Virus record (IMG/VR): IMGVR_UViG_3300043598_000005
Span: 1 to 49,171 of that record
Direction: 5' to 3' (one strand)
Origin: a virus
Length of the DNA stretch: 49,171 bases
Each line of letters opens with the position of its first letter. Within the stretch, counting starts at the first letter, position 1. A program made the position numbers and the translations under genes. Under the pieces are notes generated by a model. It searched no databases and was not told the DNA's origin. It saw only the letters and a program-made list of their open reading frames with translations. Positions 7,102 to 23,913 of the stretch are shown piece by piece.

Positions 7102-7730
7102 TGGCAAGTACTGTCCCTCGGAAGCGGCACGGGGCTCGGAAACGTTGCTCGGACCCGAACAACATCGGGTGCACTGGATTCGCGCGGCGCAACTCCGAGC
7201 CCCTGGCGTGTCATGAGTGCGGGGGAGGGACCCGCGCTGAAATCAAACACTTCGAAGACGGCAGCCGGCTGGAGCGGGGCCAGGTGATCGTGTCCGGCCG
7301 AGTGCAAATGCTTCTGAACGGCACTCTCTCGGTGGACGACCTGGACGACGAAGAGCTTGCCCGGGGCTATCCCAAAGCAAAAGACGGAACGTTCCGGGGT
7401 GTACCGCCGAAGGTGATTCCCCGCGCGATGCACAACGCAATCCGCAAGAAGCTCTTCGAGCGGGCCGCCGAGAAGTTGCAAATGGATTTGCTCGACACGG
7501 TCACGTACATGGGTGAAGTGGTGCGCAATACCCAGATCGACCCAAAGACCCGGCTGGACGCGGCTAAGTGGATCGTGGAGCGGATCATGGGTAAGAACCC
7601 GGACCGGGTGGAGTTCTCCGCCGACAAGCCATTCATGGAGCTACTGGAGGACATCCACCGGGGACCCGCTCCAAAAGCAATCGAAGCCACCATCGTGGAT
7701 GCGGAAATCGTGGAGGACCCCCGGCTCTAG
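7101..7730 (+). CDS. Putative terminase small subunit (first set)
   Basis: 209 aa from ATG 7101 (TGATG coupling). An N-terminal basic zinc-like segment (CSDPNNIGCTGFA, CHEC) precedes a helical domain ending in TRLDAAKWIVERIMGKNPDRVEF, a segment typical of terminase small subunits and small-terminase-like HTH proteins of actinophages. The large terminase at 8234 follows closely. Alternatively it is an accessory DNA-binding protein. Confidence 0.6.
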   Translation: MASTVPRKRHGARKRCSDPNNIGCTGFARRNSEPLACHECGGGTRAEIKHFEDGSRLERGQVIVSGRVQMLLNGTLSVDDLDDEELARGYPKAKDGTFRGVPPKVIPRAMHNAIRKKLFERAAEKLQMDLLDTVTYMGEVVRNTQIDPKTRLDAAKWIVERIMGKNPDRVEFSADKPFMELLEDIHRGPAPKAIEATIVDAEIVEDPRL

Positions 7731-8052: not shown

Positions 8053-8244
8053 ATGCATCGTCGGCGGTGGCATGAGATCCCGCTCGTGCGGAACCTCCTT
8101 GGCCTGCACTCGATCACTCGCAGCTTCGAGCTGTGCTGTTGGTGCCTCCGGTGCCGGCAATGGCGGACTCACCGCCAGGGTTGCACGATCTTATCCAGAG
8201 GCATATCAGAAGCATTTGAAAAGGGGCTGCGCCGTGCCGACTAA
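8053..8244 (+). CDS. Small Cys-rich protein upstream of TerL1
   Basis: 63 aa, starting at ATG 8053 with a GGAGGAG ribosome site 2-3 nt upstream. CCWCLRC near residues 34-40 is a likely metal knuckle, and the chain is basic and His/Trp-rich. Its end overlaps the GTG start of the terminase by 11 nt, so the two are coupled. A packaging-related role is suggested only by position. Confidence 0.6.
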   Translation: MHRRRWHEIPLVRNLLGLHSITRSFELCCWCLRCRQWRTHRQGCTILSRGISEAFEKGLRRAD

Positions 8245-9718
8245 GCTGGACCCGTGGAAGGTCTACGAGCGGTTGGGGTGGCGCCCGCACAAGGGCCAGC
8301 GTGAGGTGATCGGGTCCACCGCTCGGCACCGGGTTGTCTCGGCCGGCCGCCGGTTCGGGAAGTCCGAGATCGGCGGGCACGAGCTAGTCCCGGAGGCACT
8401 GCTCACCTACGACCACAAGCCCCGGTTGGAAGCGGAAGGCAAACGGCGCGAGTTCTGGATTGTCGGGCCGGAGTACTCCGACGCGGAGAAAGAGTTTCGG
8501 GTACTTTGGAATTCAATCAAGGCACTCGGAATCCCGTTCGACAAGCCCGGTTCGTACAACGATCCGATTCAAGGCAACCTGCATATCTCACTGTGGGGCG
8601 GCACCTTCCAGGTGCATGGTAAGTCCGCCAAGTACCCGGAGACCCTGGTTGGTGAAGGCTTGCGCGGGGTGGTGCTCGCGGAAGCGGCCAAGCTGAAAGA
8701 GCGGGTCTGGACGAAGTTCCTCCGGCCGACTCTGGCGGACTACGAGGGGTGGAGCCTGCACTCCTCCACGCCCGAGGGCAAGAACTGGTTTTATGAAAAC
8801 TGGCAACGCGGGATCGACCCGAACAATCCGGACTGGGCTTCGTGGCGGATGCCGTCCTGGCGCAATCCGTACGTGTACAAGAAGCTGACCGAGGACGCGC
8901 ACGTAAAGCAATTGCAATCGGCAATGGCGCGCGGATTGCCGATCTATGACTACATCGAAGAGCACGGGCTCCAGGTGGATGACGAAGTGCTGTCCCTGAT
9001 GAATGACCTCACGGCGGAGGCTTTCAATCAGGAGATCGGCGCGGACTTCACCGAGTTCGTGGGGCGAGTTTTCAAAGAGTTCGACGAAGAACTACACGTA
9101 TTTGATTTGCAATACAACCCGGCGTGGCAGACCTACGCGGCGGCGGACTACGGGTTCACGAACCCGAACGTCTGGCTTCTCATTCAGATCGGGCCGTGGG
9201 GTGAGGTGCACGTCCTGGACGAGCTGTACGAGCGCAACCTCACCGCCGTGGAGTTCGCCCAGCGCGTCAAAGAGACTGGGCTGTGCCCGCCTGGGTTGCG
9301 GGTGTTCTACCCGGATCCGGCCGACCCCGGCTCCAGCAGAATTTTAAGTGAAAAGCTCGGCATCCGAGTGGGCGGTGGAACCGGCGCGATGATCCGGGAC
9401 CGGCTGGACGCCATCCGGCGTGCTTTGAAACTGGCGAACCCGCATCTCCCGGACGGGCACCCGGACAAGCTGCCGCAGCTGCGGATCAACCGATCTTGCA
9501 AGAACACGATCTACGAGTTCAACGAGTACCGGTACCCGGAGCGCAAAGAGACCGCCCTCGGGGACGCGGCTCCGGAGAACCCGATGAAGAAAGACGATCA
9601 CACTCCGGAGGCTCTCGGCCGGTTCTTCTCCGGCCACTTCGGCACCCCGCAGAACTCGCGCAGCGGCGTGATCAGGCACAAGCCCCGGTTTGCCTCCGGC
9701 CGGAAGAGGTTGGGCTAG
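8234..9718 (+). CDS. terL: Terminase large subunit, first copy (siphophage type)
   Basis: 494 aa. GTG 8234 is used because the homology starts there (PTKLDPWKVYERLGW) and an AAAAGGGG site precedes it. The ATPase has Walker A SAGRRFGKSEIG (Lys43). At Walker B the usual hhhDE reads VVLAEAA: Glu150 is kept but Asp is Ala149. The C-terminal RNase H-like nuclease has YAAADYGFTNP, FYPDPADPGS and KKDDHTPEALGRFF, supplying the acidic triad. It should cut and translocate DNA into proheads. A second large terminase lies at 16857, beside the portal, so this copy may be the accessory one. Confidence 0.9.
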   Translation: MPTKLDPWKVYERLGWRPHKGQREVIGSTARHRVVSAGRRFGKSEIGGHELVPEALLTYDHKPRLEAEGKRREFWIVGPEYSDAEKEFRVLWNSIKALGIPFDKPGSYNDPIQGNLHISLWGGTFQVHGKSAKYPETLVGEGLRGVVLAEAAKLKERVWTKFLRPTLADYEGWSLHSSTPEGKNWFYENWQRGIDPNNPDWASWRMPSWRNPYVYKKLTEDAHVKQLQSAMARGLPIYDYIEEHGLQVDDEVLSLMNDLTAEAFNQEIGADFTEFVGRVFKEFDEELHVFDLQYNPAWQTYAAADYGFTNPNVWLLIQIGPWGEVHVLDELYERNLTAVEFAQRVKETGLCPPGLRVFYPDPADPGSSRILSEKLGIRVGGGTGAMIRDRLDAIRRALKLANPHLPDGHPDKLPQLRINRSCKNTIYEFNEYRYPERKETALGDAAPENPMKKDDHTPEALGRFFSGHFGTPQNSRSGVIRHKPRFASGRKRLG

Positions 9719-9744
9719 ACAACCTGCCGCTTTGAGCGTAAGGT
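9716..9744 (+). promoter_or_regulatory. Rightward promoter with palindromic operator 9
   Basis: TAGACA (9716-9721, overlapping the terminase stop), 17-bp spacer, TAAGGT (9739-9744). The operator GCCGCT-TTG-AGCGTA (9726-9740) fills the spacer, and GTG 9753 starts 8 nt after the -10. It is the only rightward leaderless copy and lies inside the packaging region. Confidence 0.88.
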
Positions 9745-9752
9745 TCCCGGCT

Positions 9753-10016
9753 GTGCCTATTACTCCTAAGGGCCGTCTTCTCACTAATGAGGAGGTGGCG
9801 GACATCCTGGACCCGAACCACGAACACAAGATGGATCGTGGATCGGTCACCAAAGCCATGTCCCGAGCCGGACTCAGAGCGGTCATCGGATGGGATGAGG
9901 CAGACGCGCACGATCTCAAAAGCTACACCGACATGCCGCAAAGTTTCAAAAGGCGGTACACGTTCGAGCAGTGGAGGGCGCTCAAAGATGCCGAGGAAAG
10001 CCGCACTACTAGGTGA
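9753..10016 (+). CDS. Putative HTH-type regulator or DNA-binding protein, leaderless
   Basis: 87 aa from GTG 9753, directly under an operator-containing promoter. The N-terminal TPKGRLLTNEEVADIL and DRGSVTKAMSRAGLRAVIGW read like two helices of a winged or HTH domain; the C-terminal part is basic and aromatic (SFKRRYTFEQWRALKDAEES). Because it has its own regulated promoter, it is a candidate for a regulator acting on the palindromes. This is an inference from position and a weak HTH resemblance. Confidence 0.6.
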   Translation: MPITPKGRLLTNEEVADILDPNHEHKMDRGSVTKAMSRAGLRAVIGWDEADAHDLKSYTDMPQSFKRRYTFEQWRALKDAEESRTTR

Positions 10017-10173
10017 CCAGTACCACCGCCATCACCTCGCCGAGATCCTCCGGGGCTACCGCGAGCTAGTGGACAAAGTGGCCCCGGAGGGACACACCCA
10101 ACCGCTCACCAAACGGGACCGGGCTTTCATTGACGACCTGTTCGAAGAGCTGGGCGGAACGGGGAATGACTAG
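9988..10173 (+). CDS. Small helical protein (61 aa)
   Basis: ATG 9988 lies inside the end of the previous gene with a GGAGGG site upstream. Polar helical protein (QYHRHHLAEILRGYRELVDK, KRDRAFIDDLFEELGG). It overlaps the next gene. Function unknown. Confidence 0.65.
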   Translation: MPRKAALLGDQYHRHHLAEILRGYRELVDKVAPEGHTQPLTKRDRAFIDDLFEELGGTGND

Positions 10174-10468
10174 CGATCAGTACGGGATGTCGACAGCGGA
10201 GGCCATGATCCACATGACACAGCTACCGCGCGAGCCCCGGCCGGGCCCCACCGAGGAAGAGCTACAGGAGATGTACCTCCGCTCGTTGCCGGCACTGAAC
10301 CCGCTGGAGGTGGACGAGCATCACAGCCCGCCTCGGTTCTTCGTGGTGGTGTGCAAGGAGTGCGCGGACGCGGAGGTTCCATTCAGCACACCGGAGGCCC
10401 GAGCGGAATGGGTGCAAGCGCATCGGGGTGGTACCGGCCACAATCAATTCCAACTGTGGACCGCGTAA
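10166..10468 (+). CDS. C2H2-type mini zinc protein, copy 1
   Basis: 100 aa from ATG 10166 (ATGACTAG overlap). The C-terminal 45 residues hold C-x2-C then H-x5-H (VVCKECADAEV, then AHRGGTGH), which fits a C2H2 zinc finger with a long loop. The N-terminal half is acidic and disordered-looking. The zinc module is duplicated in the next gene. Confidence 0.7.
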   Translation: MTSDQYGMSTAEAMIHMTQLPREPRPGPTEEELQEMYLRSLPALNPLEVDEHHSPPRFFVVVCKECADAEVPFSTPEARAEWVQAHRGGTGHNQFQLWTA

Positions 10469-10635
10469 AGCTGATCTTCTGGGTGGTGTGCAAGGAGTGC
10501 ACCGAAGAACCAAACGTCCATTTCAAAACTAGATTAGACCGAGCCACATGGTTGTCCGAGCACATCTTGATACGCGGCCATTTGGATTGGAGGTCATGGG
10601 AGGCAGAGGAAGATGGAAGACAAGACCCGGCTTAA
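10456..10635 (+). CDS. C2H2-type mini zinc protein, copy 2
   Basis: 59 aa, from GTG 10456, inside the end of copy 1 and in a different frame (+1). VVCKECTEEPNVHF, RATWLSEH and RGHLDWRSW align with the zinc module of copy 1 (shared VVCKEC, RAxW, H-x5-H, terminal W), so the two come from a tandem duplication. The GTG choice is fairly safe because no other start precedes the first Cys. Confidence 0.66.
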   Translation: MDRVKLIFWVVCKECTEEPNVHFKTRLDRATWLSEHILIRGHLDWRSWEAEEDGRQDPA

Positions 10636-10876
10636 GCTCACTCGAATAGCAATGCATATCTGCGAACTGATCACCTGCGCGTTCTCGTTGGGATTGGTTT
10701 TCTACTGCTGGTGGTTCGGACACGAGATCGGCGCCATGATCCTGGGCGTGATGTGTTTCAGCGCTTTCGTTTACTACTACCAGATGCAGCTCCGTCCGCC
10801 GCGCAACGATCCGCCGTGGCCGGAGTTCGACAAGAAGAGTGGCTCACTCGTGGTGCAAGCCGTGGAGGACGACTGA
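10613..10876 (+). CDS. Two-helix membrane protein (87 aa)
   Basis: ATG 10613 has a GGGAGGCAGAGG site. It has helices AFSLGLVFYCWWFGHEIG (near 23-40) and AMILGVMCFSAFVYYYQM (near 41-58), with a polar acidic tail. Overlaps the previous gene by 23 nt and the next by TGATG. Unknown function. Confidence 0.72.
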   Translation: MEDKTRLKLTRIAMHICELITCAFSLGLVFYCWWFGHEIGAMILGVMCFSAFVYYYQMQLRPPRNDPPWPEFDKKSGSLVVQAVEDD

Positions 10877-11160
10877 TGGATTCCTTTTATAACGTGGAGA
10901 TCCGGGTGACCCGCAGGGAGAGCCGGATGGCGCCTTTTGCCGGCCCGGTGACGGACTCGCATACCGTGCTTGACTTGGTTTTCATTTCGGCCAGCGTCAC
11001 GGAGGCAGTGCACCGCGCGGGGTACCACTTGGACCAACTGAAAGACCCGGTGGTGGAGGCCCGGCTAAGCCAGGAGAAAGAGAAGGCGCTCGAAGCGGAA
11101 GACCGATACCGGGAGGCAGCCAAGTCCGAAGCGCAGCACGAACTACCGCTCCCCAATTGA
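10876..11160 (+). CDS. Hypothetical protein (94 aa)
   Basis: ATG 10876 overlaps the membrane protein stop. An N-terminal beta-like part (YNVEIRVTRRESRMAPFAGP) is followed by a charged helix (RLSQEKEKALEAEDRYREAA). Unknown. It precedes the cysteine protease by 10 nt. Confidence 0.72.
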   Translation: MDSFYNVEIRVTRRESRMAPFAGPVTDSHTVLDLVFISASVTEAVHRAGYHLDQLKDPVVEARLSQEKEKALEAEDRYREAAKSEAQHELPLPN

Positions 11161-11170
11161 AAGGAAACGT

Positions 11171-11878
11171 GTGTCGTACGTAATTGACATCGAAGCCTTC
11201 GATGACTCGGATCTACTGGACCCCCGGCTGAAGCGTCGGAAGGTGCACGACTCGCGGAGCCGGTTCTTTGCTACCCCGGCGAGCAAGACCCGGCAGCCCA
11301 CCCAGAACATCCGGCACGAGCGGAAGGCGCCGATTTGGGACCAGGGCATGTTGGGCTCGTGCACCGCGAACGCTTTCCTCGGCATGTTGATGACCGAGCC
11401 GTTCCACACGTGGGGCGGCGGCAAGTGGCGGTTTGCCGAGCCGGATTGTGTTTCATTCTATTCGCTGGAGACGCGGCTGGACCCGTTCACCGGGAGCTAT
11501 CCGCCGGAGGACACCGGCTCGGCTTTCCTGTACGCGGCCAAAGCGGGGAAGCAAATGAAATACATCAGGAAGTACGAACACGCGTTCAACACCACGAGCG
11601 CGCTCAACTGGCTGGTGGCACAGCCGATCAACATCGGTGTCACTTGGTACGAATCCATGATGGAGACCGACAAGCAAGGTTTCGTGGCGCCGCGCGGACG
11701 CATCGCGGGCGGGCACGAGATCTGCGTGGATGAAATCAATTCATCCAAGCGGTACGTGGAATTCTCCCAGTCGTGGGGCGACTCGTGGGGGCCCCTGAAG
11801 GGCCGAGGGCGGATGACGTGGGAGACCCTGGACACTCTCCTGCGCCAAGACGGAGATGTCGGATCGGTGGTGACGTAG
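11171..11878 (+). CDS. Papain-like (C1) cysteine protease
   Basis: 235 aa from GTG 11171, behind AAGGAAAC. The catalytic layout of C1 peptidases is visible: WDQGMLGSCTANA (oxyanion Gln58, nucleophile Cys64), GGHEICVDE (His182) and FSQSWGDSWG, where papain has N-S-W-G. Here the usual Asn is Gln200. There is no signal peptide, so it acts in the cytoplasm or in the virion. Possible targets are a virion precursor or a host protein. It is not next to the capsid genes, which have their own JAMM protease. Confidence 0.85.
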   Translation: MSYVIDIEAFDDSDLLDPRLKRRKVHDSRSRFFATPASKTRQPTQNIRHERKAPIWDQGMLGSCTANAFLGMLMTEPFHTWGGGKWRFAEPDCVSFYSLETRLDPFTGSYPPEDTGSAFLYAAKAGKQMKYIRKYEHAFNTTSALNWLVAQPINIGVTWYESMMETDKQGFVAPRGRIAGGHEICVDEINSSKRYVEFSQSWGDSWGPLKGRGRMTWETLDTLLRQDGDVGSVVT

Positions 11879-11881
11879 GCG

Positions 11882-12079
11882 ATGAGAGTGCGGCCGGCAA
11901 CGTGGCGCTACACGGTGGCAAAGGTAGTGGCCAGTTTCTCCGTGATCTACTTTGCTGGCTCCGCCGCGTTGCTCTGGTACGCCACGCGTACCGACCGGTT
12001 GTTCTATTGGTTCACCGGTTCGTTGCTCCTGCTCGGCGGGATCATCGTGGTCAAGTGCGCATGGGACATTAGGAAATGA
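11882..12079 (+). CDS. Two-helix membrane protein (65 aa)
   Basis: ATG 11882. It has two helices, VAKVVASFSVIYFAGSAALL and WFTGSLLLLGGIIVVKCAW. No strong ribosome site, but spacing is tight after the protease, and ATGA overlap with the next gene supports it. Unknown function. Confidence 0.72.
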   Translation: MRVRPATWRYTVAKVVASFSVIYFAGSAALLWYATRTDRLFYWFTGSLLLLGGIIVVKCAWDIRK

Positions 12080-12366
12080 ATATGGATTATCCACCTCGGT
12101 TCTCTGCCTCGCAAGACAACCACCGCTGCCACGCGTGGCGGTGTCCGAAGGTGGTGCCGCCGTCGCAACTGATGTGCGCGTACCACTGGAAGATGGTTCC
12201 GTACCGATTGCAAAAGGATGTCTGGGCGCGATACCGGCCCGGTCAGGAGGTGACTAAGGACCCGAGCGAGTCATACATGGTGGCAGCCCGGAAGGCTATC
12301 GAGTACGTCAAGGAAATTGAAATTGAAAAACGGAGGGAAAAGCGTGAAACGACTATCGGAGACTGA
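12076..12366 (+). CDS. Putative zinc-finger protein (96 aa)
   Basis: ATG 12076 (ATGA overlap). C-x4-C (CHAWRC) and C-x2-H (CAYHW) give a four-ligand zinc cluster in the first 40 residues, a pattern common in actinophage proteins of unknown role. A long charged C-terminal helix (AIEYVKEIEIEKRREKRE) follows. May bind DNA or RNA. Confidence 0.72.
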   Translation: MNMDYPPRFSASQDNHRCHAWRCPKVVPPSQLMCAYHWKMVPYRLQKDVWARYRPGQEVTKDPSESYMVAARKAIEYVKEIEIEKRREKRETTIGD

Positions 12367-12368
12367 TC

Positions 12369-12662
12369 ATGTGTCCTAAGTTCACCGAAACGGAGGGCGC
12401 TCGAACTTGGCAACAAGAGTTCGACCGGCGGGTTAAGTCCGGGAAGTACAAGACCGATGGCGGTTGGCGGATGGGCAAGCGCGTTGCCGACGACACCGGT
12501 CACATGTTCACCCGCAAGGGTGGAGATTGCTGCGGTTGCGGGCGCTCCACGCTCGCGGCCGACGATCGGGAGAACATCAACCGTGGTCCGAAGTGGACCG
12601 GGCCGGGTGGCAGGCAGATGAAGGCCAAGAACCCGCACAACCAAGGGTGGCGACTCTGGTGA
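12369..12662 (+). CDS. Cys-knuckle basic protein (97 aa)
   Basis: ATG 12369. Basic N-terminus, then GGDCCGCGRSTL near residue 52 with three Cys, then a basic glycine-rich tail (KWTGPGGRQMKAKNPHNQ). A zinc site would need other ligands (His45 is close). Its end overlaps the GTG of the next gene. Unknown function. Confidence 0.68.
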   Translation: MCPKFTETEGARTWQQEFDRRVKSGKYKTDGGWRMGKRVADDTGHMFTRKGGDCCGCGRSTLAADDRENINRGPKWTGPGGRQMKAKNPHNQGWRLW

Positions 12663-12868
12663 CATGGGGCAGCCGGATGGACAAGCAACTCCGAGAGACT
12701 CGGGAACTGACTGGTACCGGTCAGCTCGGCCGGCGTTCCGGCGGGCAGACCTCGAAGCGCTGCGGTACGTGTGGGGGCTCGGGCCAGATGCGCCCGAGCG
12801 GCGGCCGGAAGTTCCGTAAGACCGGCGGCGGCACCTGCACGGGTTGCGGCGGGAGTGGACTGAAATGA
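12659..12868 (+). CDS. DnaJ-type CxxCxGxG zinc-module protein
   Basis: 69 aa from GTG 12659 (GTGA overlap; ATG 12677 is an alternative). CGTCGGSGQ and CTGCGGSG are two copies of the CxxCxGxG motif that forms one zinc site in the DnaJ cysteine-rich domain. There is no J domain. Such isolated modules are seen in phages; they may bind unfolded protein or act as redox or zinc scaffolds. Confidence 0.72.
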   Translation: MTWGSRMDKQLRETRELTGTGQLGRRSGGQTSKRCGTCGGSGQMRPSGGRKFRKTGGGTCTGCGGSGLK

Positions 12869-13068
12869 GTAAGCGTGGCCGGCCCGGGGATCCCAAGAAG
12901 CCTGTACAGAAGTCCAAGATAGACGGGCTCGCTGGAGAGCGGGTGACGTTCTGGCGTCCCCGGGTTGGTCACGGTCCGGTGGTCGGCCGGTACAAGATCC
13001 GTAAGTGCGACGGTTGCTCGTGCACCTCCCGGGCGGAAGAGCTGGAGTGTCTGTCGAAACGGGACTAG
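12865..13068 (+). CDS. Small basic Cys-containing protein (67 aa)
   Basis: ATG 12865 (AAATGA overlap). Basic N-terminus (SKRGRPGDPKKPVQKSK), then RKCDGCSC with three Cys and a fourth near the end (LECLSKRD), a possible zinc ribbon. Unknown function. Confidence 0.68.
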   Translation: MSKRGRPGDPKKPVQKSKIDGLAGERVTFWRPRVGHGPVVGRYKIRKCDGCSCTSRAEELECLSKRD

Positions 13069-13114
13069 TTTTGGTCTACTGCGCGGCCCTGTTGTGGTGC
13101 GTAGTCTGTTTGGC

Positions 13115-13294
13115 ATGGCTAAAAAGAAGATCCACATCAAGAAGAGTAATCGGGGCAAGCTGCGCAAGACAACCAAAACCAAAAAGGGGAACAAGATCCC
13201 CGTGTCGAAATTACAAAAAATGAAAAAGAGCAAGAACCCGAAGACCCGGAAGCGAGCCACTTTTGCATTGAATGCTAGAAAGTGGGGCAAGTGA
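13115..13294 (+). CDS. Lys-rich nucleic-acid-binding-like protein
   Basis: 59 aa, starting MAKKKIHIKKSNRGKLRK; over a third of residues are Lys or Arg. The MAKxKIHIK-type start resembles a family of small basic proteins in actinophages. ATG 13115 has no ribosome site but lies 7 nt after TAGTCT, a -10-like hexamer, so it may be leaderless; the -35 is weak and no palindrome is present. It could bind DNA or RNA. Confidence 0.72.
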   Translation: MAKKKIHIKKSNRGKLRKTTKTKKGNKIPVSKLQKMKKSKNPKTRKRATFALNARKWGK

Positions 13295-13617
13295 TGGAGC
13301 TGGAGCTGGAGCTATGGGGACGGTGTGGACTGTGCGACATCGCTGGGAAAGCTTTGGGTACGAGTCTGCCGGACCTATTGAACCACTACCGGCTACTCCA
13401 CCCCGACACCGAACTGACGGAAGTCTCAGCGCTGGAGATCGACGAGCGTTTCGAAAAGCAAAAAGGGAGGGATCGAAGTGGGAGCGTGGCCGGAAGAGAA
13501 ATGCCCGCACTGCAAGAAAGTCTGCGCCCCCTACGTGGACGGACCCGAGCGACACGATCGGAACTGTATCTGGGGCCCGAGACGAAACCAGCCGAAGCAA
13601 CCGAAGAGACCCGCTAA
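13294..13617 (+). CDS. C2H2-like zinc protein with long overlapping tail
   Basis: ATG 13294. WGRCGLCDIAGKALG followed by LLNHYRLLHPD gives a C-x2-C...H-x4-H finger at residues 10-35. The last 46 codons overlap, in another frame, the strongly supported gene at 13478, and that tail has the low-complexity look of a shadow. The true end by frame is 13617, so either both frames are used or the function sits in the first 60 residues. Confidence 0.6.
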   Translation: MELELELWGRCGLCDIAGKALGTSLPDLLNHYRLLHPDTELTEVSALEIDERFEKQKGRDRSGSVAGREMPALQESLRPLRGRTRATRSELYLGPETKPAEATEETR

Positions 13618-13627
13618 GTTTGCATGA
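13478..13627 (+). CDS. Small zinc-ribbon protein (49 aa)
   Basis: GTG 13478 has a perfect GGGAGG site 6 nt upstream. KCPHCKKVC (C-x2-C-x3-C) and a later His-Cys pair (RHDRNC) suggest one zinc ion. It is entirely inside or overlapping the previous frame. The basic Pro/Lys tail suggests nucleic-acid contact. Confidence 0.6.
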   Translation: MGAWPEEKCPHCKKVCAPYVDGPERHDRNCIWGPRRNQPKQPKRPAKFA

Positions 13628-13748
13628 CTTCTGGGATAAGTACTCCTGGGTGTCCACCATGGTTGCGATTGCGGTGATGACGGCACTGTGGTGGTTGGCC
13701 GAGTTCCTCGGGGACGCGGCAGACGCTCTGGGCGACTACTCTCCGTAG
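13620..13748 (+). CDS. Small membrane protein (42 aa)
   Basis: Best start is TTG 13620, overlapping the previous stop. One membrane helix (STMVAIAVMTALWWLAEFLG), then an acidic tail. The start is uncertain because TTG is the only option upstream of the helix and the ribosome site is poor. ATG 13659, within the helix, is unlikely. Confidence 0.5.
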   Translation: MHDFWDKYSWVSTMVAIAVMTALWWLAEFLGDAADALGDYSP

Positions 13749-13781
13749 TTTGAAATTCTCACCGGAAGAGAATGAAAGAGA

Positions 13782-14249
13782 ATGCCTAGAGGCGTGTACC
13801 CGCGATACCGCAGCCCGGAGGAGGCGGCCGAAGCGCGGAGAATGCAAAAGGTCCGGGCGTGGACATACCACGTCCGGGCCTTCAGCTATGACAAAATTGC
13901 AAAGCGGATGGGCATCTCCGCGTCGTTTGCGTGGGAGCTAGTGCAGGAGATGCGAGAAGAGATCGAGCTACCGCCGGAGGAAGCCGCCGTGAAGGTGGCA
14001 CTGGCGCGCTTTGAAGAGGTGCTGGTGGTGCTCTACCGGAAGCTGAAGGTAGCCGACGAGAAGACCGCGCCCAACTTGTCCCGTGCCATCCACGAGAACA
14101 TCCGCAACCAAATGGCACTGCTCGGGTACGCCAAACCGACCCGGCTTCAGCTCATGACCAACGGGGACCGGGACAAAGTCAACGAAGAGTACGCCGAACT
14201 CATTGCAATCGAGAAGGCCCGTCAGATGGCCGAAGAGGAGTCCGAATGA
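13782..14249 (+). CDS. HTH protein, putative terminase small subunit (second set)
   Basis: 155 aa. The N-terminal half has an HTH (AFSYDKIAKRMGISASFAWE) followed by an acidic linker and a helical bundle (IHENIRNQMALLGYAKPTRLQL). This layout is typical of terminase small subunits and HTH proteins near TerL in actinophages. It lies upstream of the second large terminase (16857), with small genes between, so it may recognise the packaging site for that set. Alternatively it is a transcription regulator. Confidence 0.65.
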   Translation: MPRGVYPRYRSPEEAAEARRMQKVRAWTYHVRAFSYDKIAKRMGISASFAWELVQEMREEIELPPEEAAVKVALARFEEVLVVLYRKLKVADEKTAPNLSRAIHENIRNQMALLGYAKPTRLQLMTNGDRDKVNEEYAELIAIEKARQMAEEESE

Positions 14250-14527
14250 CGCTCTACCGCAAGCGCCCCGTCGTGGTGGACGCGATGCAGTGGACCGGGA
14301 CTAACATCACCGACCTGTGGGCATGGGGCGGCGCGGAGGGCATCTACGGCCCGACCGACGAGAACCCGGCCGGGTTGCTCTTGACCACCATTGACGACGT
14401 GCAGGTGCCGTGTCCGCTCGGGCACTGGGTGATCATGGAGCCGGTGCCGGCCCGGTTCTACCCGTGCAAGCCGGACGTGTTCGCGGACTCCTACGAGCCC
14501 GTGCAAACGGACCCGGTAGTGGAATGA
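14246..14527 (+). CDS. Conserved phage protein with 'FYPCKPDVF' end
   Basis: 93 aa from ATG 14246 (ATGA overlap). RPVVVDAMQWTG at the N-terminus and ARFYPCKPDVFADSYEPV at the C-terminus match a widespread phage family of about 90-110 aa with the same order of motifs (compare GEFYPCKPDIF). Biochemical function is unknown. Confidence 0.8.
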   Translation: MTLYRKRPVVVDAMQWTGTNITDLWAWGGAEGIYGPTDENPAGLLLTTIDDVQVPCPLGHWVIMEPVPARFYPCKPDVFADSYEPVQTDPVVE

Positions 14528-14760
14528 AATCCGACGAAGAACTAGCGGCGCAAACGCTCTGGCTTCCCCGCCACGAAGTGGGTAACAAAGCCATGCCCGG
14601 GGACATCGTGTTCGTGCTCGCGCCGGAGACCACGGTTGGCTTGACCCTGCTGATCAACGGCTCTCCGGCGCTCTGGTGGCGACGCTGGCAGCGCGGCGAC
14701 ACGCTACCAGTCTCCGCGTACCTGATAGGACTCCTGCGATTGAAAGAGGTTGCATCGTGA
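14524..14760 (+). CDS. Hypothetical protein (78 aa)
   Basis: ATG 14524 (ATGA overlap). Contains a hydrophobic core (IVFVLAPETTVGLTLLING) without a clear membrane helix. Coupled to the next gene. Unknown. Confidence 0.7.
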   Translation: MKSDEELAAQTLWLPRHEVGNKAMPGDIVFVLAPETTVGLTLLINGSPALWWRRWQRGDTLPVSAYLIGLLRLKEVAS

Positions 14761-15110
14761 GCGTTGCGTACTGGTGGAAGCCCCGAGCGGAGGGCGAGCC
14801 AACGAACGTCTATCTGGCCCGGATCCTGCGCGAGCTGGGCGCCGAAGAGGTGGCGGTGAAAGCGGACGCCTATCACTACGACGATTTCAAATGCCCGCCC
14901 GAAGTGGACGACGGGATGAACATCCATCACCTCATCCTGGACCTCACCCGGTGGTGCAACCCGTTCGACACCGCGATTCGGGAGAAGACCACCGTGCTAA
15001 TCCTGGCCGCCAAGCGCGGTGAGTTTGACGGCACCAAAGAGGAATCCAAAGCATGGTTCGAATCGAGCGAAGGGCAGGCCACCCTCCGGAACCTGTTGGG
15101 CGGTAGGTGA
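14757..15110 (+). CDS. Hypothetical protein (117 aa)
   Basis: GTG 14757 (GTGA overlap). Alpha/beta composition with a HHLILDLTRW core and a charged C-terminal part. No motif recognised; its end couples to the next gene by TGATG. Confidence 0.7.
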   Translation: MSVAYWWKPRAEGEPTNVYLARILRELGAEEVAVKADAYHYDDFKCPPEVDDGMNIHHLILDLTRWCNPFDTAIREKTTVLILAAKRGEFDGTKEESKAWFESSEGQATLRNLLGGR

Positions 15111-15370
15111 TGGCGCAGCTTGCCGGGGGTATCTACTCGATGGATTCATTTCCATTCCAGTTCTATCAACAGGAGGTGATGGAGGCGGTCCACGGGCGAG
15201 CCCTCAAAGGACTAGCCGATGTCGGGGCCTACGAGATCGGGTACTCCTGGGAGAAGAACCTAGGCGGCCAGAACTGGGTAGCGCTGACCCCGATGGAGAT
15301 CCTCGCCATGGTGGAAGGAAGTCAGTACGGCTACGAAGTTCGGCTAAGAGTGATTGGAATCGTACCCTGA
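15110..15370 (+). CDS. Hypothetical protein (86 aa)
   Basis: ATG 15110 by TGATG overlap (GTG 15107 is one codon earlier). Mixed composition, aromatic-rich (FPFQFYQQEVMEAVHGRA, YEIGYSWEKNLGGQNWV). Unknown function. Confidence 0.7.
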   Translation: MAQLAGGIYSMDSFPFQFYQQEVMEAVHGRALKGLADVGAYEIGYSWEKNLGGQNWVALTPMEILAMVEGSQYGYEVRLRVIGIVP

Positions 15371-15945
15371 TGACGAACTATCTCGTGTCCGCAACCTGGA
15401 CCATTTCCGAGATCGGCAACCGGTTCAGCAAAACCGGCATCCTATCGGTGACCGCATCGAACGCGCTGGATGCCATTGCAAACGCGGTGGAGAAGTCCGG
15501 CGATGCGATGTGCACCTGTTACGAGGTGGTCCGCTGGTCCGAGGGCGACCCGCCGGCTACCTTCCGTTTCCACTACGAGGACGCCGCCCGGTCCGAATCG
15601 AGCATCTCCGGCGACGAGCCGCCACCCGGCAAGTTCGCGGACCCGGCGGTACTGCGGCCGGAGTTTGAATTGCAGGTGGATTGCGGGCCGTCCTCTACTA
15701 AGTACCCGCATACGGAGCTGCGCGAGCCGAGCCCACCGGATGACGAGCAGTGTCCACAGTGCGGCTCGATATTCCGCTCTGTGCGGCGGTTACTGTACGG
15801 GACACGGTGCCGTTCCGAGTGGCATACCCAAGTGGACGTGGTCACCACCAGCGGCGGGATCATCACCATCAACGGGGAAGCCTACGCACGCCGGCCGAGT
15901 CCCACCGCCCGCTGGAGCGTTTCCAAGGAGGACTGGGATGCCTGA
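15370..15945 (+). CDS. Hypothetical protein with CPQC motif (191 aa)
   Basis: ATG 15370 (TGATG). An N-terminal TNYLVSATWTISEIGNRF domain, an acidic linker, then a zinc-like segment with CPQCGSIF near residue 125 and a further Cys near 146 (TRCRSEWH), then a beta-rich tail. Unknown; the gene has a good ribosome site for its successor inside it. Confidence 0.7.
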   Translation: MTNYLVSATWTISEIGNRFSKTGILSVTASNALDAIANAVEKSGDAMCTCYEVVRWSEGDPPATFRFHYEDAARSESSISGDEPPPGKFADPAVLRPEFELQVDCGPSSTKYPHTELREPSPPDDEQCPQCGSIFRSVRRLLYGTRCRSEWHTQVDVVTTSGGIITINGEAYARRPSPTARWSVSKEDWDA

Positions 15946-16336
15946 CATGCCGAGCTTCGAGATCACCTCTACCGACCCCCGCCAGTTCACAATCAAAATG
16001 AACGGGGTGGAGATCTCGCCGGACCGCTGCGTAGTCACCCTGGAGCGGGGTAGCTATCCGGAGGTGGAGGTGGCGACCGTCCTGCCCGAGGTCAACATCT
16101 TCTCTCGGGCCATCCCCTTGCACCTCATCTCCGAGGACAACCACCGGGCATTGATCGTGATGGGCTGGACCCCGCCCGGCAAGAACGCGGCTGAAACGGC
16201 GGAACTACGCCGGGTCATGTTGAATGCAATCCAGTACCTCAAAGCGGCGGCAGCGCAAATCAAGGGCCCCAACGGTCAGCAACTCCAGCGCTGCGCGGAG
16301 CAATGTGAGGTGGTGCTCGGTGTCAACGAAGAGTGA
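15938..16336 (+). CDS. Hypothetical protein (132 aa)
   Basis: ATG 15938 has an AAGGAGG site 6 nt upstream, inside the end of the previous gene. An N-terminal beta domain (FEITSTDPRQFTIKMNGVEI) is followed by a helical Ala-rich tail (LRRVMLNAIQYLKAAAAQIK). Unknown. Confidence 0.74.
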   Translation: MPDMPSFEITSTDPRQFTIKMNGVEISPDRCVVTLERGSYPEVEVATVLPEVNIFSRAIPLHLISEDNHRALIVMGWTPPGKNAAETAELRRVMLNAIQYLKAAAAQIKGPNGQQLQRCAEQCEVVLGVNEE

Positions 16337-16529
16337 TACGCAGGAATACACCATCTTTTTCAAGAACGGCCGGAGCTTCGTGTTTGCCTTTGAATCGGTG
16401 ACCGACGCGGGAGACCATTTCGACACCGTGCCGGCGTTGCCGTTCGTGAACTGGGCGCACGTCATTGCCATCGTGCCCGGGGTGCACCACGAGAAGCGCT
16501 ACGACCTAAGCGGGTGGCACCGGGGATGA
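16320..16529 (+). CDS. Hypothetical protein (69 aa)
   Basis: GTG 16320 overlaps the preceding gene in another frame. Small beta-rich protein (EYTIFFKNGRSFVFAFESV). Unknown. Its end overlaps the next start (ATGA). Confidence 0.65.
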   Translation: MSTKSDTQEYTIFFKNGRSFVFAFESVTDAGDHFDTVPALPFVNWAHVIAIVPGVHHEKRYDLSGWHRG

Positions 16530-16870
16530 TCTGCGACAAGTGCAAGCGGGGCGCGATGGTTTTCCAAGCGCTGGCCGAGAGTCCCGACATCACGTTCTTG
16601 CGGTGCCCGGAGTGCGGTCACTTCGTGGTGGGGTTCGACCCGGCCCCCGGTGGGCCGACCGCCGCCGCCTACGAATCGGCCACCATGGCATGGCGGTTTC
16701 AAAAGGAATTGTGCGAATCCTACCGGGACACCCTGGAGCGGATGCTGAAGATTGTCAACGAGCGGGCGCCCTTCCTGGCCCCGGACGTGCGTGCCATGCG
16801 GGACCTACTCACCGAGGCGCTAGTTAAACCACGCACCGTATTGGAGGCGAAGGCGCGTGAGCGTGGATGA
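16526..16870 (+). CDS. Zinc-ribbon protein (114 aa)
   Basis: ATG 16526 (ATGA overlap) is preferred to GTG 16514. CDKCKRG at residue 3 and CPECGHF near residue 30 form a clear four-Cys zinc ribbon. The rest is helical (AWRFQKELCESYRDTLERML). It directly precedes the second terminase and may assist it, or be a regulator. Confidence 0.78.
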   Translation: MICDKCKRGAMVFQALAESPDITFLRCPECGHFVVGFDPAPGGPTAAAYESATMAWRFQKELCESYRDTLERMLKIVNERAPFLAPDVRAMRDLLTEALVKPRTVLEAKARERG

Positions 16871-18434
16871 CGACATTGCCCAGATCGTGCTCCAGACTCC
16901 GCCGAAGAACTTTCCATTCAACCGGTACGCCAACCTGAACCGGTACGCGTTCACGAACTCCAGTGAGTACCGGATCCTGCGCACGAGGATGGACCCGCTG
17001 CTCTTCGGCATGATCTATTTTCGAAAGCATTTGGAGTCCCCGTCCAAGCCCGGTCACATGTCACTGGCCAACTACCACGTGGACATGGCCGAGGTTGCGC
17101 GCAAGGGCTACACAAAGAAAGCGCCGGGGTGGCGGGAAGTCCGAGACACCTTCATCGTGCCGCGCGACGGCGGCAAGTCCACCTGGAACTCTCTGATCAA
17201 TCCGATTTGGGGGCTCGCGCACGGCTGGATTAAGTTCGGGGTGATCTTCTCCGATACCGCCGATCAGGCCATCATCCTAATGAAAGCAATTAAGGACGAG
17301 TTCGACCTGAACGATCGGCTCCAGCGGGACTTCCCCGGGCTGTGCCTGGCCGCGCGCACCTGGGAGAACCGCAGCGCCGGAGACACTAAGAAGAGCCACT
17401 ACAGCGCGGGTGGTCAAACCCTGTTGGCGCGCGGGATCGAAGACGGCTCGCTCGGGCTGAAGTCCGGCAGCCTGCGGCCGGACTGGATTGGCTTGGATGA
17501 CATCCAGCCACCGGAGAGCAAGTACGGTCCGAACAAGCGACAGCAACGACTAGACGATGTGCAAAACGTAATCCTGCCGATGAACGTCCGAGCCCGGGTG
17601 GTGTGGTCCGGCACCACCGTGATGTATGGCTGTCTCATTCATGAGTTCGTCCGGGCGGCTCGGGGAGTGCCGCACGAGAAGTGGATAGAGGCGCAGGGCT
17701 TCACCCCGCACTACTTCCCGGCGATCATGACGAACGATGACGGTACCGAGTACTCGGTCTGGCCGCAGAAGTGGTCTCTGGCGCAATTGGATTCCATTCG
17801 TACATCCAAGGATTTCGCTTGGAACTACGACAACGATCCGCACTCCAGCTCGGACCCGTACTGGCTGGAGGGCACGTTCAACCACAACCTCTTCCCGATC
17901 GACGAGCGCGGCATGGTGCTGGACTTCGCTACCACTTCGAAGGCATCCAGCGACTACACCGGAGTGGTGATCGGTGGCTACTCCCGCCCGCGCCGCAAGG
18001 TGCTCAAAGAGTACGGGCTCGCGGTGAAGCAAGACCCGGCGAACATCCGCAAGCTAGTGGGGCAGATCTTCCGGGACAACAAAAACCCGCCGATCACCAC
18101 TCTCATAATGGAAATCAATCAGGGTGGCGATACCTGGTACGAGATCCTGAAGCCGGTGATCCCGAGTAACTGTGAGGTCATCTTCGTCAACGCCGGGGTG
18201 AAGAAAAACGAAAACGATTTGGGTGCCGGTAGCAAGAAGGTGCGCGCTCGACGAGACTCGAACTACTACGCATACGGTTGGGTACATCACCACCCGGTGC
18301 ACTGCCGGAAGATGGAGCAACAGATGTGTGCCTTCGGTGGCGCCAAGGAAGCGCCGAACGATGACCTGGTGGACGCGGGCGGGTACCTGGACCACCACTA
18401 CCTAGGCAGCCGGCCGAAGCCCACCGAGGTATAG
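16857..18434 (+). CDS. terL: Terminase large subunit, second copy (T7-like type)
   Basis: 525 aa from GTG 16857, overlapping the preceding gene. ATPase: FIVPRDGGKSTWN (Walker A, Lys107) and PDWIGLDDIQPPES (Walker B, Asp214-Asp215). Nuclease: LDFATTSKASSDYTGVVIGG, TLIMEINQGGDTW and NDDLVDAGGYLDHHY supply the acidic residues of the RNase H-like fold. This is the pattern of the T7/phiKMV-like TerL branch, unlike the copy at 8234. It sits 11 nt before the portal gene, the normal place for the packaging motor. Confidence 0.92.
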   Translation: MSVDDDIAQIVLQTPPKNFPFNRYANLNRYAFTNSSEYRILRTRMDPLLFGMIYFRKHLESPSKPGHMSLANYHVDMAEVARKGYTKKAPGWREVRDTFIVPRDGGKSTWNSLINPIWGLAHGWIKFGVIFSDTADQAIILMKAIKDEFDLNDRLQRDFPGLCLAARTWENRSAGDTKKSHYSAGGQTLLARGIEDGSLGLKSGSLRPDWIGLDDIQPPESKYGPNKRQQRLDDVQNVILPMNVRARVVWSGTTVMYGCLIHEFVRAARGVPHEKWIEAQGFTPHYFPAIMTNDDGTEYSVWPQKWSLAQLDSIRTSKDFAWNYDNDPHSSSDPYWLEGTFNHNLFPIDERGMVLDFATTSKASSDYTGVVIGGYSRPRRKVLKEYGLAVKQDPANIRKLVGQIFRDNKNPPITTLIMEINQGGDTWYEILKPVIPSNCEVIFVNAGVKKNENDLGAGSKKVRARRDSNYYAYGWVHHHPVHCRKMEQQMCAFGGAKEAPNDDLVDAGGYLDHHYLGSRPKPTEV

Positions 18435-18445
18435 AATTCCTGGTC

Positions 18446-19960
18446 ATGGCGCAGCTCTTCACTCCGTACTCGTCCGCAAAGCCGTACTTCGAGGGCCCAG
18501 TTCCGCCGGGTCTGCCGGAGACGGACGTGGACCGGCTGCGCTCGTACCTGCTCTATGAAGAAATGTATTGGAATCATCCGGACACCTATCGGATCACCAT
18601 GCGCGGGGACGAAGAGAACCCCATCTATATCCCGCCGGCTAAGAAGATCGTGGAGGCGGTGAACCGGTACCTGGCGGTGGATTGGAATTACAACATCGAA
18701 GGGACCGGCACCGCACAGACCCGGATGGACGTGGTGCTGCGCGCCCTGTTTGCCCGGGAGATGGTGCACACGAAGTTTGCCACCCAACGGCGCTTTGGAT
18801 TGATTCGTGGTGACGCGGTCTGGCACATCACCGCTGACGATCGCAAGCCGCTCGGTTCCCGGATCTCCATCCACGAGGTGCACCCGGGCCAGTACTTCCC
18901 GATCATGGATCCGGACGAGCCAGACCGGTTGCTCGGGGTGTACCTGGTGGACCAGGTGAAAGATCCGCGCTTCCCGGACACCGACAAGGTGTGTGACCGG
19001 CGGCAGGCGTACCGCAAAGCCGAAGACGGCACCATCACCACCGAGCTAATCCTGTTCGAGCCGGGCAAGTGGGACGACCGGCCCGAGGTGTCCGTTTTGA
19101 AAGACGGAAAGGCCACCGTAATCAAGGTGCTCCGCGATGAGGAGTCGCTGCCGCCGGAGATCACCGCGATTCCGGTCTACCACGTGCGCAACACGCACGA
19201 CTCCGCGTGGCCCTTCGGCTCTTCCACCCTGCGCGGGATCGAGACGGTGATAGCCGGCGTGCAACAGGGCACCACCGATCAGGCACTCGCGGTGGCCCTC
19301 GGTGGGCTTGGCGTGTTCTGGACCGACGCCGGCCCGCCTCGGGACTCACAAGGCAACGTGATGCCGTGGCAGATGGGCCCGGGGCAGATGACCGAGGTAC
19401 CGCAGGGCTCCACGATGGGCCGGGTTGGCGAACTCAGCTCGGTGTCCCCGTCGCTGGACCACATTAACTTTCTGATCGACGAAGCCCAATCCGGAGCCGG
19501 CGTACCTGATCTCGCGGTCGGCCGGGTGGATGTCGCGGTGGCCGAGTCCGGCATCTCCCTCACTTTGCAAATGAGTCCGCTTATTGCCGGCAACGCGGAG
19601 AAGGAATCCGCCATCCTCGGGGTAACTGATCAGTTCCTCTACGACCTGACACACATGTGGTTCCCCGCGTACGAAGAGCTGTCCGAGCCCACCGTGGAAG
19701 TCACCTCGGTAGTGGGTGACCCGTTGCCGAAGAACCGGACCGATCAGGTAACCGAGATCGTCACGCTGTACCAGGCGAACCTGATCACCACCGATATGGC
19801 GATCGAGCAACTCGGCGAGTTGGGGTACCGGTTCCCGGCCGGGGCCGCTGCCAAGCTACTGGAGCAAGCGGCGGCTACGGCGGTGAACTCTGATCCGTTC
19901 GCCGCGCGGAGTGAGAGCGAGTTGAGCAATGCTAACGGCAACGGTAACAACAATCAGTAA
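18446..19960 (+). CDS. Portal protein
   Basis: 504 aa. It has the typical SPP1-gp6/HK97-type portal composition: an N-terminal acidic clamp part, central wing (FEPGKWDDRPEVSVLKDGKA), stem-like helix region after SSTLRGIETVIAGVQQGT, and an Ala-rich C-terminal crown ending in Asn-rich sequence. It forms the dodecameric ring at one capsid vertex that docks the terminase. ATG 18446 lacks a ribosome site but is 8 nt after TAGAAT, so it too may be leaderless; it lacks the palindrome. Confidence 0.9.
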   Translation: MAQLFTPYSSAKPYFEGPVPPGLPETDVDRLRSYLLYEEMYWNHPDTYRITMRGDEENPIYIPPAKKIVEAVNRYLAVDWNYNIEGTGTAQTRMDVVLRALFAREMVHTKFATQRRFGLIRGDAVWHITADDRKPLGSRISIHEVHPGQYFPIMDPDEPDRLLGVYLVDQVKDPRFPDTDKVCDRRQAYRKAEDGTITTELILFEPGKWDDRPEVSVLKDGKATVIKVLRDEESLPPEITAIPVYHVRNTHDSAWPFGSSTLRGIETVIAGVQQGTTDQALAVALGGLGVFWTDAGPPRDSQGNVMPWQMGPGQMTEVPQGSTMGRVGELSSVSPSLDHINFLIDEAQSGAGVPDLAVGRVDVAVAESGISLTLQMSPLIAGNAEKESAILGVTDQFLYDLTHMWFPAYEELSEPTVEVTSVVGDPLPKNRTDQVTEIVTLYQANLITTDMAIEQLGELGYRFPAGAAAKLLEQAAATAVNSDPFAARSESELSNANGNGNNNQ

Positions 19961-21484: not shown

Positions 21485-21912
21485 ATTTTCCGCAGGTGCC
21501 GCCCGAGGTGGCCGGCCAGTTGATCGCGGCTGCCGCGTGCTCACCGCACCGGGAGATCTGCGGCTTCATCACCCACGACTGGCGGATCGTGCCCATCCGC
21601 AACGTGGCCGCCGGGGACCGCTCGTTCGCCATGGATGAGGACGAGTTGATGAAGCTCATGGTGGCTACCGAGGGCCGGTTACTCGGGATCTATCACAGCC
21701 ACCCCGGCGGGGACCCGTACCCATCGGATACCGATGAGACGTTCGCCTACACGCGGTACTACCGCTATTTCATTGTGACCGCGCAGGGATTTTACGAATG
21801 GGATTTCTCTGATGGCAAACCCAAAGCGATCAACGCAGCGGGCCAGCGGTTCGCCGAAGACATGGCTTACCCGTTATTTACAGCTCCAGAGAAAATACGA
21901 CACCACGATTGA
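21481..21912 (+). CDS. JAMM/MPN metalloprotease
   Basis: 143 aa from ATG 21481. JAMM signature: Glu25 (REICGF) and GIYHSHPGGDPYPSDTD with His72, His74, Ser82 and Asp85, which bind a catalytic zinc. JAB1/MPN proteins cut isopeptide or peptide bonds; phage versions occur in tail-tip assembly proteins. Here it is a stand-alone gene next to the MuF-like protein and scaffold, so a capsid-maturation or scaffold-processing role is likely by position. Confidence 0.88.
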   Translation: MNFPQVPPEVAGQLIAAAACSPHREICGFITHDWRIVPIRNVAAGDRSFAMDEDELMKLMVATEGRLLGIYHSHPGGDPYPSDTDETFAYTRYYRYFIVTAQGFYEWDFSDGKPKAINAAGQRFAEDMAYPLFTAPEKIRHHD

Positions 21913-22672
21913 CCAGGCGCTCGCGGACGCGGCCGAGGATGCCGCGCTGGAGATGCACTCCGGACACCGGGCAGTGCAGACCCGGCACGCGGTACTTGCG
22001 ATTCAATCCATTCTGGGCACCTTCTGGCAGGGCCTCGGGGACACCATCAAAGCCGGTCGGTCCGAGGCTGCCGCGCTCGCGGTGGAGCAGAGCTTCTCGT
22101 GGAACCGCTACTACTGGGATAAGACCGGCCGGCGTGAAGAGCTGCGCAAGAAGCTCACCGCCGAAGCGGAGCGCAACGTGGAAGCTGCGGTGGCCCGGAT
22201 CTACAAGACGCACATCCCGCTCGCGGAGTCGGTGTACAAGACCCGTGCGCTAGCCGATGGATGGGTGGACAAGAAGGTGACCTCCGGGCTAGCCCGTGGG
22301 CTCACCGTGGATGAGATGAAAAAGGAGGTAACGGATTTCATCAAGCCGGACGTGAAGGGCGGGGTGTCCTACGCGGCCCGGCGACTGGCCAGATCTGAAA
22401 TCAATAACGCGTACCACGCAACCACCATCGTGCACAACGAAGAGCTACCGTTCGTGGAAAGCATGACCTGGCGGCTGTCCGGGAGCCACCCTCGGCTAGA
22501 CATTTGCAATGTACTGGAGCAGAACTCTCCGTATCCCAAGGAGAAGGTTCCGCCGAAGGCACACCCGCAATGTCTGTGCACGGTGTACCCGAACACCACC
22601 AGCCACGACGATTTTTTCAAAGCGTTCAACGAAGGCCAGTACGACACATGGCTAGATTCGCTGCCAGACTAA
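21812..22672 (+). CDS. MuF-like minor capsid protein
   Basis: 286 aa. The C-terminal half carries the Mu F-like box: ARRLARSEINNAYHATTI, WRLSGSHPRLDICN and KAHPQCLCTVYPN with Cys and His residues. MuF-type proteins join the portal and are packaged in the capsid. ATG 21812 is the only start in frame, giving a 101-nt overlap with the JAMM gene in another frame. The N-terminal part is helical. Confidence 0.85.
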   Translation: MANPKRSTQRASGSPKTWLTRYLQLQRKYDTTIDQALADAAEDAALEMHSGHRAVQTRHAVLAIQSILGTFWQGLGDTIKAGRSEAAALAVEQSFSWNRYYWDKTGRREELRKKLTAEAERNVEAAVARIYKTHIPLAESVYKTRALADGWVDKKVTSGLARGLTVDEMKKEVTDFIKPDVKGGVSYAARRLARSEINNAYHATTIVHNEELPFVESMTWRLSGSHPRLDICNVLEQNSPYPKEKVPPKAHPQCLCTVYPNTTSHDDFFKAFNEGQYDTWLDSLPD

Positions 22673-22716
22673 AGGGTCCGGTAGGATCTCAGGATCACGA
22701 CACGAAAGGAACCACC

Positions 22717-23460: not shown

Positions 23461-23462
23461 CC

Positions 23463-23912: not shown

Positions 23913-23913
23913 C

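What the first reader, a model, noticed from the sequence alone, without database searches (positions are those of the whole stretch)
8234..18434. Two complete terminase large subunits of different types
Both 8234-9718 and 16857-18434 have an ATPase plus an RNase H-like nuclease with the acidic residues visible. The first is siphophage-like with a Walker B change; the second is T7-like and abuts the portal. Each has an HTH or small-terminase candidate upstream (7101-7730, 13782-14249). A phage needs one packaging motor, so the second set is either a spare, a specialised nuclease, or part of a different packaging strategy. Some actinophages may share the arrangement; I cannot check.
Basis: partly seen in the sequence, partly recalled or inferred. 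Interest (0 to 1): 0.75.

Follow-up and report, generated by a model that had tools for sequence, protein, structure and literature searches.

The report
Actinophage carrying a captured second terminase
A virus of actinobacteria carries its own DNA-packaging enzyme plus a second complete one from an unrelated virus lineage, wedged between its own enzyme gene and its portal gene; this arrangement was not found in any relative searched, and the second enzyme looks altered in ways that suggest it is not the packaging motor.

Summary
In detail: two full-length, uninterrupted large terminases of different families lie at 8234-9718 (TerL1, PHROG 2) and 16857-18434 (TerL2, PHROG 38). Each has its own small subunit: TerS1 (about 7284-7730) and TerS2 (13782-14249); TerS2's family occurs only upstream of TerL2-type genes. 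Portal, capsid, connector and tail-tube genes all match TerL1-type phages (Gordonia, Nocardia, Mycobacterium), so TerS1-TerL1 is the native motor. TerS2-TerL2 sits in an expanded cargo island between TerL1 and portal. Two close relatives have TerL1 and an island without TerL2; two more, truncated before TerL1, have island and portal without TerL2; no record searched holds both types. DNA shared with a relative begins at TerL2's stop codon (18432), and TerL2's tail is shorter than in 88 of 88 relatives. TerL2 has the longest branch of 104 and E217Q at a site that is E in 103 of 103 others, yet keeps its ATP-binding and nuclease residues. TerL1's 'Walker B change' is family-wide, not a defect. 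Best reading: a captured terminase, probably not docking to this portal. Its function (spare, TerS-guided nuclease, weapon against rivals, or relic) is undecided. It rests on one metagenomic contig.

The parts
7284..7730 (+). TerS1, native small terminase subunit (ORF open from 6906; coding signal from 7284)
   Evidence: PHROG 10899 TerS E=8e-23; homologues in 45 TerL1-type loci; codon score start 7284
8234..9718 (+). TerL1, native large terminase subunit (PHROG 2 type)
   Evidence: motifs; 0/92 conserved columns changed
9719..13781 (+). Left part of the TerL1-portal island: small genes incl. cysteine peptidase-like 11171-11878, PHROG 18063 protein 12076-12366, Lys-rich protein 13115-13294, each with a homologue in at least one close relative's island
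13782..14249 (+). TerS2, small subunit cognate to TerL2
   Evidence: fold HTH + helical hairpin + C-terminal helix
14246..16870 (+). Small genes between TerS2 and TerL2 (14246 PHROG 1810; 14757-15110 has a homologue in the island of L194; 16526 zinc-ribbon-like)
16857..18434 (+). TerL2, second large terminase subunit (PHROG 38 type), foreign; E217Q; short C-terminal tail
18428..18438 (+). Right junction: TAG stop of TerL2 within GTATAGAATT, a TANNNT -10-like box before the portal; DNA homology to L002 begins at 18432
18446..19960 (+). Portal protein, TerL1-lineage
21812..25221 (+). MuF-like protein, scaffold, small head protein and major capsid protein, all TerL1-lineage

Best explanation
The phage's packaging motor is TerS1-TerL1, the pair that belongs with its portal and capsid. 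TerS2-TerL2 is a second, complete terminase pair captured from the TerL lineage of Streptomyces phages Yara, KimJongPhill and Zuko and Microbacterium phage OscarSo. It lies inside a cargo island between TerL1 and the portal, and TerL2 ends exactly where the native portal upstream sequence begins, losing the end of its C-terminal tail. Because that tail is the portal tether in lambda TerL, and no portal of its type is present, I infer that TerL2 does not dock to this phage's capsid and acts, if at all, as a soluble, TerS2-guided DNA-binding ATPase/nuclease. Shown: the two pairs, their lineages, the insertion, the short tail, E217Q and the intact nuclease residues. Inferred: capture as a pair, no docking, soluble action.
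For: Head and tail-tube genes match TerL1-type phages and none matches Yara, OscarSo or Mulchroom. TerL1 ends within 873 bp of the portal in 80 of 82 relatives; the gap is 3.8 kb in L002, 6.1 kb in L003 and 8.7 kb in the window. L214 shares flanking island genes (Lys-rich protein 87.5% identical) with only about 0.4 kb from there to the portal against 5.2 kb in the window. L002, L003, L194 and L214 lack TerL2 and TerS2 by tblastn. TerS2 cognacy: the top 5 of 13,021 ORFs all lie upstream of TerL2-type genes; 86 hits of the iterated model all do, none in TerL1-type loci; hold-out E=4e-10. TerL2 has the longest terminal branch of 104 (1.60 vs median 0.11, maximum of others 1.13), 8 of 72 conserved columns changed, E217Q vs E in 103/103, and a tail of 25 aa vs 29-40 in 88 others, whereas TerL1 has 0 of 92 changed. 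DNA homology to L002 starts at 18432, TerL2's stop codon. The lambda TerL C-terminal portal tether is stated in PMC9026076.
Against: The long branch may only reflect an unsampled donor lineage. E217Q is one base from GAG (codon CAG) and could be a sequencing error or compensated. That the C-tail docks to the portal is known for lambda, not tested in this family. At least one gene between TerS2 and TerL2 is found in a relative's island (L194), so TerS2 and TerL2 may not have arrived in one step. No close relative of TerL2 exists to measure selection. L194 and L214 are truncated before TerL1.
Confidence: 0.6

Rival explanations
1. Functional spare: TerS2-TerL2 is a true second motor that has adapted to this portal and packages from a second pac/cos site, giving the phage two packaging modes.
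For: All P-loop and nuclease residues are kept, the fold is predicted whole, TerS2 is intact, TerL2 sits directly before the portal and its codon usage fits the genome.
Against: Native TerL1 is conserved without change; TerL2's tail is the shortest of 89 and E217 is changed; no portal of its lineage is present; no relative uses it.
Confidence: 0.15
2. Passenger or relic: a captured pair with no selected function, on its way to decay or to replacing TerL1.
For: The site is a cargo slot with different content in each relative (L002 alginate-lyase-like gene, L003 a 70-aa ORF). TerL2 is the most deviant family member together with L158. Absent from relatives.
Against: 680 codons of TerS2 and TerL2 without a stop or frameshift; catalytic residues all kept; codon usage within the range of the core genes.
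Confidence: 0.3
3. Interference device: TerS2 recognises packaging sites of competing TerL2-type phages or their satellites and TerL2 cuts or blocks that DNA without packaging it.
For: Nuclease and TerS intact while docking tail and a motor-domain residue are changed; TerL2-type terminases are those of actinobacterial phages and of satellites MiniFlayer and MulchRoom (PMC10690885).
Against: No direct evidence of specificity or of an encounter with such rivals; nuclease residues would also be kept by a normal terminase.
Confidence: 0.12
4. Assembly artefact: the contig joins two viruses.
For: A single metagenomic contig, no second copy found, reads not available.
Against: TerL2 is nested between two TerL1-lineage blocks, so two mis-joins would be needed; an island exists in this place in L002 and L003 too; island genes homologous to those of relatives lie on both sides of TerS2; gene boundaries are neat and TerL2's start overlaps its upstream gene with a GGAGG site; GC3 and codon usage match the genome.
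Confidence: 0.05

Closest known systems
Gordonia phage Wojtek / Lambovirus, Nocardia phage P3.1, Mycobacterium Plotvirus (BigMama)
   Same: TerL1 about 52-60% identical, same portal, MuF, scaffold, capsid and tail-tube families in the same order
   Different: One terminase only; TerL directly followed by the portal
Streptomyces phages Yara, KimJongPhill and Zuko; Microbacterium phage OscarSo
   Same: TerL2 33-37% identical over the full length; KimJongPhill, Zuko, OscarSo and the related Isperia have a small subunit of the TerS2 family just upstream
   Different: One terminase only; portal, capsid and tail of another lineage; TerL tail intact
Satellite phages MiniFlayer and MulchRoom (PMC10690885)
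   Same: TerL of the TerL2 family with a small subunit
   Different: Carry their own portal, scaffold and capsid; the window has only the terminase pair of that type
Published 'two large terminase' phages: vB_EfS_SE, phiPDS1, vB_G30_01, XaC1/XbC2 (PMC11510935, PMC10773633, PMC11512304, PMC11273794)
   Same: Two ORFs annotated as TerL
   Different: phiPDS1 and vB_G30_01 are one TerL split in two; vB_EfS_SE has a homing endonuclease gene between its two TerL ORFs; XaC1/XbC2 have an uncharacterised tandem without TerS. None is described as two full-length families each with its own TerS

Membership tests
PHROG 2 terminase large subunit (TerL1) | Profile match over ATPase and nuclease | tested here: met
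   E=4e-39, residues 14-461
PHROG 2 terminase large subunit (TerL1) | Walker A, Walker B glutamate, coupling motif and three nuclease acids conserved as in relatives | tested here: met
   0/92 conserved columns changed
PHROG 38 / Yara-type terminase large subunit (TerL2) | Profile match and full-length alignment | tested here: met
   E=6e-46; alignment A1
PHROG 38 / Yara-type terminase large subunit (TerL2) | P-loop, DD of Walker B, nuclease acids | tested here: met
PHROG 38 / Yara-type terminase large subunit (TerL2) | E of the DDxE motif, E in 103/103 relatives (a feature seen in the relatives, not a published family criterion) | tested here: not met
   Q217 in the window
PHROG 38 / Yara-type terminase large subunit (TerL2) | C-terminal tail of 29-40 aa after DDxVDA, usually ending in [ST]x(0-4)[YF] (a feature seen in the relatives, not a published family criterion) | tested here: not met
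   25 aa, no such end; 88 relatives 29-40 aa, 72 with the motif
PHROG 38 / Yara-type terminase large subunit (TerL2) | Next to a portal of the same lineage (context, not a criterion of the protein family) | tested here: not met
   Window portal matches TerL1-type phages only
Small terminase subunit (TerS2) | Homologous to TerS upstream of TerL2-type genes | tested here: met
Small terminase subunit (TerS2) | HTH, helical oligomerisation core, C-terminal TerL-binding segment | tested here: inconclusive
   Helices fit, but Foldseek finds no significant PDB match; best is Sf6 TerS at E=1.3
Working packaging motor (TerL2) | Docks to the portal and translocates DNA | not testable with these tools
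   needs biochemistry
Phage satellite / cf-PICI | Own portal and capsid with the terminase | tested here: not met
   Only one portal and capsid, of TerL1 lineage; no such genes found in the island
Split TerL (intron, intein or homing-endonuclease interrupted) | The two ORFs are halves of one protein | tested here: not met
   Each has ATPase and nuclease and belongs to a different family

The most novel reading that the evidence does not exclude
A weaponised terminase: the phage has repurposed a rival lineage's TerS-TerL pair, cut loose from the portal and altered in its motor domain, to recognise and cleave or block packaging of competing phages or satellites at their own packaging sites.
Probability: 0.1. 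Interest if true: 0.85.

Novelty: new variant of a known kind. Interest (0 to 1): 0.55.

Why it matters
Tailed phages are taken to need one packaging motor matched to one portal. A genome with two complete cognate terminases of unrelated families and one portal is a natural test of how TerS-TerL-portal specificity is kept, how terminases are exchanged between phage lineages (a possible intermediate), and whether terminases can be put to uses other than packaging. I found no described precedent in the open literature searched.

Tried and rejected
Idea that TerL1 is the degenerate copy because of its Walker B: rejected, family-wide. Idea that TerL2 is the motor because it abuts the portal: not supported, the portal belongs to TerL1's lineage. 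Split gene or frameshift: rejected. Satellite inserted in a phage: no satellite portal or capsid found. Mobile-element signs: no convincing flanking repeats around the island. Close TerL2 relatives in IMG/VR: none by single sequence; with an alignment 80 loci kept, plus 18 in bacterial and archaeal genome contigs, about 38% identical at best. Close tape-measure relatives: none. TerS2 by tblastn against phages: none at 0.01, found only by profile. TerL2 against plasmids: only partial, weak matches. TerL2 against PDB by sequence: nothing useful. The sigma-70 promoter scan gave nothing above chance, so the -10-like box before the portal rests on conservation in four phages only. The first TerL1 alignment failed on a coordinate error and was redone in a script.
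Full report
The window is a 49,171-bp IMG/VR virus record, probably a fragment. TerL1 (8234-9718) matches PHROG 2 TerL and TerL2 (16857-18434) matches PHROG 38 TerL. TerL1's nearest named relatives are Gordonia and Nocardia phages at about 60%, with metagenomic relatives at 75% (L002) and 67% (L003). TerL2's nearest are Streptomyces phage Yara, Microbacterium phage OscarSo and the satellites MulchRoom and MiniFlayer at 31-36%.

Which one is native? The portal, MuF-like protein, scaffold, major capsid protein, connectors and tail-tube protein all match the phages that carry TerL1; none matches Yara, OscarSo or Mulchroom. In 80 of 82 TerL1-type loci the portal starts within 873 bp of TerL1. In the two closest relatives the gap is 3.8 kb (L002) and 6.1 kb (L003), and in the window 8.7 kb. 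These islands share content, for example a cysteine-peptidase-like gene and a PHROG 18063 protein, but the slot just before the portal differs: an alginate-lyase-like gene in L002, a 70-aa ORF in L003, TerL2 here. Two further close relatives found by capsid protein (L194, L214) also lack TerL2 before the portal. L214 is collinear with the window on both sides: its Lys-rich gene (87.5% identical to 13115-13294) lies about 0.4 kb from the portal, against 5.2 kb here.

Is TerS2 real? A single-sequence search of 13,021 ORFs from all loci put five ORFs on top, every one upstream of a TerL2-type gene; about 5% of ORFs lie within 2 kb upstream of such a gene. The iterated model gave 86 hits, all upstream of TerL2-type genes and none in TerL1-type loci. 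A model built without the window finds TerS2 as its only hit among 600 window ORFs, E=4e-10. Gaps above 2 kb between TerS and TerL occur in 21% of such pairs, so the 2.6 kb here is not unusual. The predicted fold is HTH, helical hairpin and C-terminal helix, though Foldseek gives no significant match. One gene between TerS2 and TerL2 (14757-15110) has a 50% homologue in the island of L194, so the two may not have arrived in a single clean step.

Co-occurrence. A TerL2 profile finds nothing in 45 TerL1-type records searched whole, TerL1 finds nothing in 52 TerL2-type records, PHROG 2 finds nothing in 24 of them although the same search rings in control genomes, and none of 98 TerL2-type loci has TerL1 or this portal type. 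Many of the records are fragments, so absence is bounded by that.

State of the two enzymes. TerL1 changes none of 92 columns conserved in its family and has an ordinary branch; its Walker B alanine is the family norm. TerL2 has the longest terminal branch of 104 (1.60; next 1.13) and changes 8 of 72 conserved columns, among them E217Q in the DDxE motif, E in 103 of 103 others (codon CAG). Its tail after DDxVDA is 25 aa against 29-40 in 88 others and lacks the usual [ST]x(0-4)[YF] end. All P-loop and nuclease residues are kept, both domains are predicted with confidence (mean pLDDT 88) and the fold matches terminases, best the PhiV-1 terminase bound by Avs3.

The junction. DNA homology between the window and L002 before the portal begins at 18432, the first base of TerL2's stop codon. 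The stop lies in GTATAGAATT; a TANNNT box at the same spacing precedes the portal in L002, L003 and Nocardia phage P3.1. This explains the short tail: the captured gene runs into native portal upstream sequence and stops there. In lambda the TerL C-terminus is the portal tether (PMC9026076), so I infer, without test, that TerL2 has lost docking to its original portal type.

Reading. Shown: two complete terminase pairs of different lineage; TerS1-TerL1 matches the head genes; TerS2-TerL2 is foreign and placed in a cargo island; TerL2 is truncated and deviant yet catalytically intact by sequence. Inferred: TerS1-TerL1 packages the genome; TerS2-TerL2 does not dock and is a soluble accessory or passenger. 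Not decided: spare motor, interference device or relic. Codon usage and GC3 of TerL2 match the genome, which argues against a mis-join and against a very recent arrival from a high-GC donor. The confidences of the best explanation and its rivals overlap, since 'does not dock' is compatible with both the relic and the interference reading.

Literature. Phages reported with two large terminases are one gene split in two (phiPDS1, vB_G30_01), two TerL ORFs with a homing endonuclease gene between them (vB_EfS_SE) or an uncharacterised tandem (XaC1/XbC2); other text matches were unrelated. A search of the open library is not proof of absence.

Noticed in passing
window 18428-18446; L002, L003, L087 upstream of the portal: Conserved TANNNT box 12-13 nt before the portal start and no Shine-Dalgarno hit in L002, L003 and Nocardia phage P3.1, suggesting a leaderless promoter for the portal in this group; the window has a similar box.
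   Followed up: partly
L002:7719-9041 and window 27731-29329: An alginate-lyase-2-like gene sits just before the portal in L002, while its homologue in the window lies among the head-tail connector genes; the same cargo at different places in one phage group.
   Followed up: partly
L189, L190 (Rhodococcus sp. IEGM 1379) and L086 (Mulchroom): TerL2-type terminases with an insertion of several hundred bases at about residue 265-275 of the query, possibly an intein.
   Followed up: no
window 46333-46815: Putative lipoprotein with an LAAC lipobox close to the endolysin (Amidase_2, 44882-45850); a superinfection-exclusion candidate.
   Followed up: no
window 43328-44077: Collagen triple-helix repeat protein downstream of the tail genes.
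   Followed up: no
window 11171-11878: Cysteine-peptidase-like protein (PHROG 16701) found in the TerL1-portal island of L003, and upstream of the portal in L194 and L214 too.
   Followed up: partly
window 47591-48637: DUF932 protein at the right end, after the tail and lysis genes.
   Followed up: no
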